Assembly (NCBI GenBank): GCA_034190545.1
Contig: JAXIOF010000043.1
Location: 1-37,955 of the forward strand
Origin: Candidatus Afararchaeum irisae
Lineage (GTDB): Archaea; Halobacteriota; Halobacteria; Halobacteriales; Afararchaeaceae
Direction: 5' to 3'
DNA: 37,955 nt
Shown in pieces: positions 1 through 32,587 of the stretch. Under the pieces are notes generated by a model. The model was not told the origin of the DNA. It ran no database searches and worked only from the letters and a program-made list of their open reading frames with translations. A program made the position numbers and the translations under genes. Numbering within the stretch: the first letter of the stretch is position 1; each line of letters opens with the position of its first letter.

Positions 1-5
1 GGAAG

Positions 6-45
6 CCCCTCCCTCAGCGAGCGCGTCAGCGCGAGCAGGGTGGGG
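6..45. repeat. Imperfect GC-rich hairpin at left edge
   Basis: The outer arms (cccctccct and agggtgggg) pair with one mismatch around a GC-rich core containing gcgc-gtca-gcgc. It lies upstream of the hel308 promoter. It could be a REP-like intergenic hairpin, the terminator of a gene outside the window, or the end of a repeat at a contig edge. The sequence does not decide between these. Confidence 0.4.
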
Positions 46-70
46 TAGTTCACTCGGGGATCACGTATCA

Positions 71-99: not shown

Positions 100-2445
100 A
101 TGAAAATCCGCGACTCCCGTATATCCGAGACGATCGACGACGACCTCCTCGAACATTACGCCGACAAGGGGATAGAGAGTCTCTACCCTCCTCAGGAGAA
201 GTCTGTCGAGAAGGGGGTCACCGACGGAGAGAGCCTCGTCGCGGCGGTTCCGACGGCGAGCGGCAAGACCTTCATAGCCCAGTTAGGGATGTTCTCGTCG
301 GAAGGTAAGTCGCTCTACATAGTCCCCCTGAAGGCACTCGCCTCGGAGAAGTACGACGAGTTCTCGGAGCTTCCGGGAGTCGACGTCGGTATATCGACGG
401 GAGACTACGACTCGACCGACGACTACCTCTCCGACAACGACGTCGTAGTGGCGACGAGCGAGAAGACAGACTCTCTGATACGTAACGGAGCCGACTGGAT
501 ACGTGACGTCTCGTGTGTCGTCGTAGACGAGGTTCATCTCCTCGACTCGGGCGACAGGGGTCCGACTCTCGAAGTCACTCTCGCCAAGCTGAGACGTCTC
601 AACCCCGAGTTACAGGTCATCGCACTGAGCGCGACGGTCGAGAACCCCGACGAAATAGCGGGATGGCTCGATGCCGAGCTCGTAGAGACCGACTGGAGAC
701 CCGTCGACCTCCGCAAGGGGGTCTACACTGAGGGCGAAGGAGTGATAGAGTTCGAGGACGTTCGTAAATCTAAGATTTGCGAGTTTCCACAAATCTCTGA
801 TTTGTGTTGTAGCCAATCAAAGATTGGCATACCCGCGAAAACGCGTAGCGTTTTCGGTTGCAACGAGACGCGAAGCGTCTCGTCATGCCCCGCTAATCAA
901 AGATTAACAGACGCCGAGACCGAGATACAGACGAGAAGTGATCCTGTCTCGTCCCTCGTTACCGACTCGGTCGACGACGGTGGTCAGTGTCTCGTCTTCG
1001 TGAGTTCGAGGAGAAGCGCCGAGGCGACCGCGAGAAGGCTCTCAGATCTCGGCTTAGACACGGGAGAAGGGGTCGGAGAGGCGGCAAGACGTATACTCGA
1101 AGACGCCGACACGGAGACGGGCGAGAGCCTCGCCGAGTACGTCTCGGAGGGCGTCGCTTTCCACCACGCGGGTCTCAGGAGTAGCCACAGGAAGGAGGTC
1201 GAGGAGAGCTTCAGGGCGAGAGACATAAAGGTCATATGTGCGACACCGACACTCGCCGCTGGGGTCAACGTCCCCGCGAGACGCGTCATAGTACGTGACC
1301 ACACGCGTTACACCGACGCAGGAATGAAGCCGCTCCCCGTCCTCGAAGTCCACCAGATGTTCGGAAGGGCGGGACGTCCGGGTCTCGATCCCTATGGAGA
1401 GGCTATCCTCGTCGCCTCGGATAACGACGACAGGGACGAAGTCTGGGAACGTTACATAGACGGAGAGCCCGAGTCTGTCTACTCTAAGTTAGCGAGCCGG
1501 AGTGCTCTGAGGACACACGTCCTATCGACTGTAGCGAGCGGCTTCGCGGATTCGAGGGAGGAGCTACGTAGCTTCCTCGACGCGACATTCTACGCCTACC
1601 AGGAGGAGGAAGCCGACCTCGGAAGTATCGCGGAGGAAGTGATCGAGTACCTCGAAGACGTGGAGATGGTCGAGGTGAGTGACGACGGCATCGAAGCCAC
1701 AGACCTCGGACACCAGGTCTCACGTCTCTACATCGACCCCAAGACCGGAGCGGAGATAGTCGGGGCTCTCGAAGGAAGTGCAGAGACTGGGTTCGATCCG
1801 ACGCCGCTGACCTTCCTCGAAGGAGTCTGTGACACACCCGACATGTATCCGTTCTACCTCCGGAAGGGAGACGAAAAGGAGATGCGTGACTTCGCGGTCA
1901 AACACGAGGAGGAGTTCGTCGATCCGCCGAGCGAGTTCGACAGGGGCTTCGAGTCGTGGTTAGCGTCTCTCAAGACGGCGCGTGTCGTCTATGACTGGAT
2001 ACACGAGGACGACACCGAGGAGATAGCCGAGGAGTACGGCGTCGGACCCGGAGACATAAACGCAAAGGTCGAACGTGCCGACTGGCTCCTCCACGCCGCC
2101 GAGTCGGTCGCCGAGACAGTCGGTACAGACGACGACATCTTGGAGACTGTTTCACGCACACGCAGAAGGGTCTCCGACGGTGTCGAGGACGAGCTTCTCG
2201 ACCTGGTCGGAGTCAGGGGGATAGGACGTGTGAGGGCGAGACGTCTCTACGACGCAGGTATAGAGTCGAGAGACGACCTGCGTGATGCCGACGTCGACTC
2301 TGTGGCGTCTCTACTCGGAAAGAAGACGGCGTCGAAGGTTCTGTCGGAGACAGGCAGAGACATCTCTCCCGACGACATAGAGGCGGCAGTAAACGGCGAG
2401 GCAGCCGTAGAAGAGACCAAGCAGTCTTCGATAGGTGATTTCTGA
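100..2445 (+). CDS. hel308: Hel308-type Ski2-like DNA helicase
   Basis: ATP-dependent 3'-5' superfamily 2 DNA helicase, in archaea linked to repair and restart of stalled forks. Visible motifs are Walker A TASGKT (52-57), DEVH box (143-146), SAT (177-179) and QMFGRAGRPG (motif VI), followed by the winged-helix and ratchet region. The C-terminus has helix-hairpin-helix-like sequence (GVRGIGRVRARRLYDAGI) and ends in SIGDF, which resembles a PCNA-interacting tail. Residues about 222-270 are a Cys-containing insertion between the two RecA domains. It is encoded by a string of short palindromes (see separate entry) and keeps the frame. The equivalent region is a short linker in other haloarchaeal Hel308 proteins as I recall them. 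It is the first gene of an operon with cgi121; TGA and ATG share one base. Confidence 0.95.
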   Translation: MKIRDSRISETIDDDLLEHYADKGIESLYPPQEKSVEKGVTDGESLVAAVPTASGKTFIAQLGMFSSEGKSLYIVPLKALASEKYDEFSELPGVDVGISTGDYDSTDDYLSDNDVVVATSEKTDSLIRNGADWIRDVSCVVVDEVHLLDSGDRGPTLEVTLAKLRRLNPELQVIALSATVENPDEIAGWLDAELVETDWRPVDLRKGVYTEGEGVIEFEDVRKSKICEFPQISDLCCSQSKIGIPAKTRSVFGCNETRSVSSCPANQRLTDAETEIQTRSDPVSSLVTDSVDDGGQCLVFVSSRRSAEATARRLSDLGLDTGEGVGEAARRILEDADTETGESLAEYVSEGVAFHHAGLRSSHRKEVEESFRARDIKVICATPTLAAGVNVPARRVIVRDHTRYTDAGMKPLPVLEVHQMFGRAGRPGLDPYGEAILVASDNDDRDEVWERYIDGEPESVYSKLASRSALRTHVLSTVASGFADSREELRSFLDATFYAYQEEEADLGSIAEEVIEYLEDVEMVEVSDDGIEATDLGHQVSRLYIDPKTGAEIVGALEGSAETGFDPTPLTFLEGVCDTPDMYPFYLRKGDEKEMRDFAVKHEEEFVDPPSEFDRGFESWLASLKTARVVYDWIHEDDTEEIAEEYGVGPGDINAKVERADWLLHAAESVAETVGTDDDILETVSRTRRRVSDGVEDELLDLVGVRGIGRVRARRLYDAGIESRDDLRDADVDSVASLLGKKTASKVLSETGRDISPDDIEAAVNGEAAVEETKQSSIGDF
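766..906. repeat. Array of six short palindromes within hel308
   Basis: There are six perfect inverted repeats, each with a 3-nt loop. Spans (stem length): 766-778 (5), 788-806 (8), 812-828 (7), 836-856 (9), 863-883 (9), 894-906 (5). Loops are taa, tct, aaa, gta, gaa and aaa. Centres are 23-27 bases apart. Four stems end at the loop in atc/gat and two in acgc/gcgt. The AT-rich composition and Cys codons differ from the flanking helicase sequence. The block is translated in frame with no stop codon. It may be an inserted miniature element or a cluster of such elements. It does not match any element family I can name. Confidence 0.85.
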
Positions 2446-9892: not shown

Positions 9893-10789
9893 TTAGCGCG
9901 TTATGACCTCACAGCCGTCCTCCTCGACTACAACAGTGTGTTCCGCCTGTGACACGAGACAGCCCTCGTCCTCCGAGAGGGTCGGGTACGAATGTACGAT
10001 GTCACGTCTTTCGAGACGCGAGACTGTCATGTCAAGACGTTTGGGGGGGAGCCATCTCTTAGCGAAGGGGAGGGTCCCGTAGTCGTCGTTGATCGTCGAG
10101 AGGAGGTCACGCGCCGCGTTCGACCTTATACGCGCGTCGGGCTCGACGAGCGAGTATATCTCGGCGGAGCCCTTCTCGTTGACCCTACCGGTTCCGTCGG
10201 TCGCGAAGGGCTCTATGGCTACGACGTCTCCCTCGTCGAGCGTTACACCCTGGTCGACTGCGTGGTTGGGAATCGAGGGTGAGGTGTGCTGTTCGTACTC
10301 GTCGAGACCGTGCCCCGTGAGGTTGTAGACGGGGTTGAATCCCTCGTCATTTATCGTCTCCTCGATTACGCGTCCTATCTCTGCTGTCGAGACGCCCGCC
10401 TCGACTACGTCTATCGCGGCTTCGAGTGCCTTCTCGGGTGCTTCGGCGAGATCCGTGTTCCCGGTCATGTCGACTGTGACCGCGGAGTCTGCTATCCATC
10501 CGTCGACGTGTACGCCTATGTCGAGGTTGACCATGTCGTCGCCGAACTCCGTCTCGTCGTCCCTCGAAGGTGTGGCGTGTGCCGCCTCCTCGTTACGGGA
10601 TATGTTGACGGGGAAGGCGGGCTCGCCTCCGAGTTGACGTATCCTTTCCTCGGCAGTCTCGGCGACTTCGAGGAGTGGGACTCCGGGCTCGACGGAGTCA
10701 GCAGCCTCCTCACGTACCTCGACGAGTATCTCCCCCGCCTCACGGTGTTTCTCGTAGTTAGTGTCAGTGTCAGTGTCAGTGTCAGTCAT
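9893..10789 (-). CDS. map: Methionine aminopeptidase, type II
   Basis: Removes the initiator methionine from nascent proteins using a dinuclear metal centre. Metal and active-site positions visible: DIGVHVDGWIADSAVTVD (two Asp ligands), GHGLDEYEQH, the IEPFAT region and a final QAEHTVVV. The insertion typical of archaeal type II enzymes is present (FAKRWLPPKRLDM). The start at 10789 was chosen because residues upstream overlap the intergenic sequence and mptE, and the ATG follows ggatata. The N-terminus is a Thr-Asp repeat encoded by four perfect GTGTCA units (complement strand). Last gene of the run ileS to map. Confidence 0.93.
   Translation of the reverse strand: MTDTDTDTDTNYEKHREAGEILVEVREEAADSVEPGVPLLEVAETAEERIRQLGGEPAFPVNISRNEEAAHATPSRDDETEFGDDMVNLDIGVHVDGWIADSAVTVDMTGNTDLAEAPEKALEAAIDVVEAGVSTAEIGRVIEETINDEGFNPVYNLTGHGLDEYEQHTSPSIPNHAVDQGVTLDEGDVVAIEPFATDGTGRVNEKGSAEIYSLVEPDARIRSNAARDLLSTINDDYGTLPFAKRWLPPKRLDMTVSRLERRDIVHSYPTLSEDEGCLVSQAEHTVVVEEDGCEVITR
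10761..10784. repeat. Hexanucleotide repeat coding a Thr-Asp tail in map
   Basis: Four perfect tandem copies of gtgtca, read on the minus strand as alternating Thr and Asp codons just after the map start. Copy-number change would lengthen or shorten the tail by two residues per unit without a frameshift. Confidence 0.85.
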
Positions 10790-32532: not shown

Positions 32533-32587
32533 GTTACGTTACGTTACGTTACGTTACGTTACGTTACGTTACGTTACGTTACGTTAC
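32533..32587. repeat. Eleven perfect tandem GTTAC repeats
   Basis: The 55-base tract is a perfect pentanucleotide microsatellite, upstream of the cobB start and running into the 3' end of the membrane protein gene. That gene's stop (TAA on the minus strand) is formed within the first two units it reads, so changes in copy number would not alter its protein. They would alter the spacing between that gene or any promoter and cobB. Confidence 0.95.

What the first reader, a model, noticed from the sequence alone, without database searches (positions are those of the whole stretch)
766..906. Regular in-frame array of six 3-nt-loop palindromes inside hel308
Six perfect palindromes (stems 5-9 bp, all with 3-nt loops) occur with centres 23-27 bases apart, and the whole block is translated through as a Cys-containing insertion between the two RecA domains. 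The stems share cores (atc-NNN-gat or acgc-NNN-gcgt) but differ outside them, so they are neither direct repeats nor CRISPR. The order, spacing and frame preservation suggest an inserted mobile or structural element that tolerates coding sequence. I cannot name a matching family.
Basis: partly seen in the sequence, partly recalled or inferred. Interest (0 to 1): 0.75.

Follow-up and report, generated by a model that had tools for sequence, protein, structure and literature searches.

The report
Mobile hairpin-pair elements in haloarchaeal genes
The odd block in this archaeal DNA-repair helicase gene is a small piece of mobile DNA made of paired hairpins; relatives of it are scattered and stacked in salt-loving archaea, sit next to or inside transposon genes, and here landed in a working gene without breaking its reading frame.

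Summary
Window 761-913 holds six hairpins (5-9 bp arms, 3-nt loops, always a C-G closing pair); shuffles of the block never gave more than three. The block is a clean 153-nt (51-aa) in-frame insertion in hel308, absent from all 29 aligned orthologues, flanked by GACG on both sides, and two more copies (92-93% identical) lie elsewhere in the same genome. It belongs to a haloarchaea-wide class of short palindromic elements. The usual unit is a hairpin pair of about 45-60 bp, roughly CGT-hairpin-linker-hairpin-ACG. Pairs occupy a fixed place in the left end of many TnpB (IS605-type) transposons, sit as optional in-frame inserts in tnpB (empty, one-unit and two-unit copies in this genome), tnpA, metG and a ThiN gene, and stack into arrays of up to 15. 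Arms co-vary (97% paired, 69% after shuffling); loops favour GNA, consistent with DNA hairpins. Closest known kinds: bacterial REP/REPIN and CGTC-tagged repeats, Rickettsia palindromic elements, Haloquadratum PATEs; none fits fully. Mobility is inferred from empty and filled sites. The mobilising enzyme is unknown: one hairpin-rich genome has neither TnpA nor TnpB detected.

The parts
100..2445 (+). hel308 (archaeal DNA repair helicase), host gene of the insertion
   Evidence: ORF of 781 aa; Pfam DEAD, Helicase_C, HTH_61, Helicase_dom4_arc, HHH_5
761..913 (.). six-hairpin element, 153 nt, in-frame insertion of 51 aa
   Evidence: absent from all 29 aligned Hel308 orthologues; removing it in silico leaves an open frame reading ...VIEFEDAETEIQTRSDP...; further copies on C25 and C75
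757..760 (+). GACG immediately left of the insert (target-like motif)
   Evidence: same motif ends the insert at 910-913
910..913 (+). GACG at the right end of the insert
762..782 (.). hairpin 1, tcgtaaatc-TAA-gatttgcga, 8 of 9 pairs
787..807 (.). hairpin 2, cacaaatc-TCT-gatttgtg, 8 bp
810..830 (.). hairpin 3, gccaatc-AAA-gattggc, 7 bp
836..856 (.). hairpin 4, cgaaaacgc-GTA-gcgttttcg, 9 bp; loop inverted (TAC) in the C75 copy
863..883 (.). hairpin 5, acgagacgc-GAA-gcgtctcgt, 9 bp; the stem is shared across Halobacteria
890..910 (.). hairpin 6, ccgctaatc-AAA-gattaacag, 7 of 9 pairs
1..53 (.). right end of a TnpB-type (IS605/IS1341) transposon just upstream of hel308: context, not part of the insert
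   Evidence: 81-94% identical over about 53 nt to right ends of haloarchaeal TnpB elements

Best explanation
The block is a six-hairpin member of a family of short, non-coding mobile palindromic elements of Halobacteria. SHOWN: it is a 153-nt in-frame insertion in hel308, with further copies in the genome. The usual unit of the family is a hairpin pair of about 45-60 nt (CGT..-hairpin-linker-hairpin-..ACG). Units occur as clean extra sequence in several unrelated genes, and stack at one tnpB site where the CAACG flank is restored after each unit. Base pairing of the arms is conserved by co-variation while loops vary. INFERRED: the arms fold as single-stranded DNA hairpins (C-G closing pair, GNA triloop). 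A transposase acting in trans, most likely an IS200/IS605-like Y1 (HUH) enzyme or a REP-transposase-like relative, joins the element 3' of a CG-ending motif such as GACG or AACG and leaves the same motif at its 3' end; that motif can then be hit again, so arrays grow. Selection on host genes keeps only in-frame, stop-free insertions in tolerant loops. In Hel308 the insert probably forms a tolerated surface loop between the two RecA domains.
For: Insertion: absent in 29 Hel308 orthologues; 16-aa gap in a ThiN gene against 19 homologues; extra segment in metG against 19 homologues. Two independent 2-hairpin inserts (45 and 51 nt) within tnpA, at WC..PK..YR, and one in tnpB. Stepwise filling of one tnpB site, CAACG|CCTGTGG: empty on C1, one unit on C19, two on C4 in this genome; empty, 57-nt and 60-nt fillings in other genera. 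Three copies of the six-hairpin block with similarity ending at the same place. CGT/ACG at both outer ends in 21 of 55 (own) and 87 of 134 (relatives) arrays, against 1% at random sites. Arms: 427 of 441 cells paired in hairpin 1, against a shuffle mean of 306 and maximum of 353, in left-end copies found without selecting for pairing. Closing pair C-G in 411 of 414 arrayed hairpins, and GNA/TNC loops in 51-83% against 12.5% expected. Unbiased 430-kb sample: 20 adjacent hairpin pairs against 0-1 in Markov sequence. Stem ACGAGACGC found almost only in Halobacteria.
Against: No transposition and no within-species polymorphism was observed. Hairpins lie within a few nt of the element ends, unlike IS608 or ISDra2, whose cleavage sites are farther from the hairpins (own knowledge). 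No tnpA was found that is cleanly bounded by these pairs. Genome G133 carries many such arrays but no TnpA or TnpB was detected, although it is only 77% complete. G133 arrays have different outer motifs (GTTC/GAAC by eye), so the ACG rule is not universal. In one TnpB left-end family the pair was always present, so there it may be a fixed part of the transposon. The two tnpA inserts are flanked by ACA-like and ACT-like motifs rather than ACG.
Confidence: 0.72

Rival explanations
1. The hairpins are the near-terminal palindromes of IS605-type transposons, and the block is a decayed, core-deleted transposon (a terminal-only PATE), not a separate kind of element.
For: Haloquadratum PATEs and terminal-only 52-bp elements are of similar size and share IS605-like palindromes (PMC3119063). 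Pairs sit in TnpB left ends and near tnpB 3' ends. A TnpB right end lies just upstream of hel308.
Against: The transposon tips carry other palindromes (CCTTCCTCA...AGGGAGGGG) and other boundary sequences, and the pair lies about 85 nt inside the left tip. Inserts in metG, thiN, tnpA, tnpB and hel308 contain no tip sequence. The same tnpB site can be empty or filled inside an otherwise intact transposon.
Confidence: 0.15
2. The arrays are functional binding or RNA-structure sites (dimeric DNA-binding protein, or guide-RNA scaffold of TnpB) kept where they are by selection.
For: Strong co-variation of arms; fixed position about 210-280 bp upstream of tnpB; pairs in the tnpB 3' region, where omega-RNA is made in haloarchaea (PMC12558985).
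Against: Entire stems are exchanged between copies and loops vary freely, so there is no common protein motif. Units sit in unrelated genes and are absent from orthologues. No Rfam family at gathering threshold covers the arrays searched. A role acquired in TnpB left ends would not explain the other insertions.
Confidence: 0.08
3. The block is a peptide-level feature of Hel308, selected for protein function; the palindromes are a by-product.
For: In frame, stop-free, located in a variable linker between the RecA domains.
Against: Absent from 29 orthologues; the same DNA occurs outside genes at C25 and C75; synonymous resampling of the block never yields more than three palindromes; only one of the six frames is open, as expected from selection against stops after insertion.
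Confidence: 0.03
4. Assembly artefact of a fragmented genome (117 contigs).
For: Many arrays lie at contig ends.
Against: The hel308 insert is inside a contig, starts and ends at GACG and keeps frame. Independent genes and two tnpA copies show clean inserts. The same structures occur in assemblies of named isolates, including complete genomes.
Confidence: 0.02

Closest known systems
CGTC-tagged REP repeats of bacteria, including Rickettsia RPE-4 and RPE-6 (PMC3733652)
   Same: 8-9 bp stems, mostly dimers, a CGT-type tag next to the hairpin, intragenic dimers that add 20-30 aa, no dedicated transposase known
   Different: here archaeal, loops of 3 nt (not 4-5), C-G closing pair, clusters common (rare there), strong association with tnpB elements (none there), no conserved CCA tail seen
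REPINs / GTAG REPs with RAYT transposases (PMC3116915, PMC2817692)
   Same: the hairpin doublet is the unit; arrays form; linked to IS200/IS605-related enzymes
   Different: no GTAG tag, and no RAYT-bounded element identified
PATEs and SMRs of Haloquadratum walsbyi (PMC3119063)
   Same: haloarchaeal, transposase-free, palindromic, associated with IS605-type elements; terminal-only PATEs are 52 bp; SMR-A elements target transposon palindromes
   Different: PATEs share the transposon tips, and these units do not; SMR-A are about 110 bp with inverted terminal repeats; pair/array structure and in-frame gene inserts were not found in the passages read
Double-hairpin and repetitive hairpin elements of mitochondrial DNA (Allomyces DHE; sponge RHE, PMC2800124, seen in search results only)
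   Same: adjacent hairpins as a small mobile unit
   Different: mitochondrial; no sequence relation tested
Rickettsia palindromic element RPE-1
   Same: in-frame insertion in unrelated genes
   Different: longer single palindrome (own knowledge), bacterial

Membership tests
CGTC-tagged REP repeats | CGTC (or variant) tag at one end of each palindrome | tested here: inconclusive
   CGT outside the first hairpin and ACG outside the last in 21/55 own and 87/134 relatives' arrays; tags read CGTT or CGTC, and G133 differs
CGTC-tagged REP repeats | stem of 8-9 bp | tested here: met
   mostly 7-9 bp, commonly 9
CGTC-tagged REP repeats | loop of 4-5 nt | tested here: not met
   loops are 3 nt; no comparable excess at other loop lengths
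CGTC-tagged REP repeats | no association with transposase genes | tested here: not met
   pairs at a fixed distance from tnpB in many genera
CGTC-tagged REP repeats | intragenic copies occur | tested here: met
   hel308, metG, thiN-type gene, tnpA, tnpB
GTAG REP / REPIN | GTAG at the foot of the palindrome | tested here: not met
   flank and linker lists show CGT/ACG instead
GTAG REP / REPIN | RAYT gene flanked by the repeats | tested here: inconclusive
   three Y1 genes in this genome, all near hairpin pairs, but none shown to be bounded by them as one element
PATE (Haloquadratum) | ends shared with an IS605-type transposon | tested here: not met
   transposon tips differ from the hairpin units
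PATE (Haloquadratum) | palindromes near the termini, too short to code for a transposase | tested here: met
   45-153 nt units
CRISPR | identical direct repeats separated by unique spacers | tested here: not met
   stems differ, linkers mostly 2-9 nt
Any of these as an active mobile element | transposition or strain-level presence/absence | not testable with these tools
   no second genome of this family was among those searched

The most novel reading that the evidence does not exclude
A previously undescribed, haloarchaea-wide class of self-nesting double-hairpin mobile DNA, built on d(C-GNA-G)-type single-stranded hairpins and spread by an enzyme other than the IS200/IS605 TnpA/TnpB machinery, which can decorate essential proteins with extra loops.
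Probability: 0.3. Interest if true: 0.8.

Novelty: new variant of a known kind. Interest (0 to 1): 0.62.

Why it matters
Small palindromic repeats are well studied in bacteria, but how they spread is disputed, and in the papers found here they are described from bacteria. This class offers clean empty, single and double fillings of one site, a simple target rule and strong arm co-variation, so the mechanism can be tested directly in culturable haloarchaea. It also shows a route by which a DNA parasite adds peptide loops to core proteins (a repair helicase, a tRNA synthetase), and it probably breaks assemblies of haloarchaeal genomes.

Tried and rejected
Rfam at gathering threshold found only tRNAs in eight sources with arrays. 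A look-up of Hel308 relatives in genome contigs found none. The stem pattern gave no match in IMG/VR viral contigs. A pattern search for empty left-end sites of TnpB elements gave mostly chance hits and one single-hairpin derivative, so the pair looks constitutive there. My first flank test was too strict on the left side and was replaced. Considered and dropped: CRISPR, tandem repeat, assembly error, protein-level selection, chance palindromes. A comparison of TnpA/TnpB counts in 12 hairpin-rich and 12 hairpin-poor genomes showed only a weak tendency (by hand: mean TnpB about 23 against 8), with G133 as a clear exception.

Full report
WHAT IS THERE. Window 761-913 contains six 3-nt-loop palindromes inside hel308. 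Their number is far beyond chance: six observed, at most three in 20,000 mononucleotide shuffles and at most three in 5,000 synonymous resamplings. Of the six reading frames of the insert only the one in use is free of stops.

IT IS AN INSERTION. Of 40 genomes searched, 38 have Hel308 matches, and those of relatives break at about the same place, near aa 210-225 and 263-283. Aligning 29 orthologues shows the extra segment only here. Taking out 761-913 leaves an open frame reading VIEFEDAETEIQTRSDP, which lines up with relatives. The insert is preceded by GACG and ends in GACG. The window genome has two more near-complete copies, on C25 (93%) and C75 (92%), and partial ones. Similarity to the C25 and C75 copies ends at 913 and begins at 756 or 754. 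In the C75 copy the loop of hairpin 4 is inverted (TAC for GTA) while its stem is unchanged.

THE FAMILY IN THIS GENOME. In a sample of 430 kb taken without regard to hairpins there are 20 neighbouring hairpin pairs at 20-32 nt spacing, against 0-1 in Markov sequence. Only loop length 3 shows the excess of long stems. Arrays run up to 15 hairpins. Arrayed hairpins are closed by C-G in 411 of 414 cases over three data sets, and their loops are GNA (or TNC, i.e. GNA on the other strand) in 51%, 70% and 83%, against 12.5% expected. C-GNA-G is, from general knowledge, an unusually stable DNA mini-hairpin (d(GCGAAGC) type; papers using it surfaced), so folding as single-stranded DNA is plausible but not shown.

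INSERTS IN OTHER GENES. A ThiN-type gene has a clean 16-aa (48-nt) two-hairpin insert against 19 homologues; metG has a 48-nt two-hairpin insert (second hairpin decayed) against 19 homologues. Gene names here rest on my reading of the sequences and their alignments, since the Pfam call for them failed. Both tnpA copies (C5, C31) carry two separate two-hairpin inserts, of 45 and 51 nt, which split the expected WCPKYR into WC..PK..YR. A tnpB on C106 carries one. Insert lengths in hel308, metG, thiN and tnpA are multiples of three, as selection on the host gene would leave; frameshifting inserts in tnpB exist in other species (L252, L293, L372). The short direct repeats around inserts range from 2 to about 7 nt, and most contain CG.

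STEPWISE GROWTH. The clearest series is a site near the 3' end of tnpB, CAACG|CCTGTGGAGACTGCG. In this genome it is empty on C1, holds one unit on C19 and two tandem units on C4. In other genera it is empty, or filled by 57-nt or 60-nt units ending in CAACG or GAACG. Each unit restores the flank it used. Over all arrays, CGT before the first hairpin and ACG after the last are both present in 21 of 55 here and 87 of 134 in relatives, against about 1% at random places.

DISTRIBUTION. Of 81 such hairpins, 54 lie in pairs and 37 lie within 600 bp of a tnpB. Pairs lie about 210-280 bp upstream of tnpB in the left end of 1.6-1.7-kb elements. The transposon tips themselves are different: a CCTTCCTCA..AGGGAGGGG palindrome on the left and GGAAGCCCC..GTAGTTCAC on the right. 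Searching for the left-end flanks alone, without any demand on pairing, gave 49 distinct copies that I took as true left ends (chance hits were set aside by eye). Arm pairing is 427/441 and 425/441, against shuffle means of 306 and 381, with whole stems switching together.

LINK TO TRANSPOSASES. This genome has 34 TnpB and 3 TnpA matches. In the unbiased sample 7 of 12 arrays touch or flank tnpB or tnpA. Yet G133, from another family, shows 60 pattern hits and 31 arrays in 303 kb with no TnpA or TnpB match. That genome is 77% complete, so the enzymes may simply be missing. Its outer motifs differ.

HOW IT MOST LIKELY WORKS. Shown: insertion, repeated units, target-like flank, stacking, conserved pairing. 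Inferred: folding on single-stranded DNA, joining 3' of a CG-ending motif, action of a Y1 or similar enzyme in trans, selection for frame in genes. The evidence does not identify the enzyme.

KNOWN RELATIVES. CGTC-tagged REPs and Rickettsia RPE-4/6 share stem length, dimers, tag type and intragenic copies, but have 4-5 nt loops and no transposase link (PMC3733652). REPINs establish the doublet as a unit (PMC3116915). Haloquadratum PATEs and SMRs are the nearest archaeal elements (PMC3119063). I found no description of archaeal pair-and-array elements of this kind in the open-access papers searched; subscription papers were not covered.

LIMITS. No strain comparison was possible, no element was seen to move, the first 36 arrays were sampled around hits, gene calls are my own heuristic, and some genomes are MAGs.

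Noticed in passing
window 1-53: Right end of a TnpB-type transposon (GGAAGCCCC...GTAGTTCAC) ends 46 nt before the hel308 start; the rest of the transposon would lie beyond the contig end.
   Followed up: partly
L095 (C5) about 10300-10519 and L090 (C31): Two tnpA copies (84% identical) each carry two separate in-frame hairpin-pair inserts near the N-terminus; loops differ between copies while stems are nearly identical; the C5 copy also has a stop codon.
   Followed up: partly
L380-L399 (genome G133): 31 hairpin arrays in 303 kb with no detected TnpA or TnpB and different outer motifs (GTTC/GAAC by eye), all outside predicted genes: a second family of the same class.
   Followed up: partly
L252, L293, L372: Different hairpin pairs inserted at the same place in tnpB (GAACGCGG|CGTGG) just after the zinc-finger region, with frameshift: a recurrent target.
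   Followed up: partly
L015 9344-9974 and L016 9071-9701 (contigs C36 and C29): Two contigs share a block of about 630 bp with ten hairpins in several arrays; possible large composite element or assembly duplication.
   Followed up: no
window 32535-32585: Short tandem 5-nt repeat (TTACG) between two minus-strand genes.
   Followed up: no
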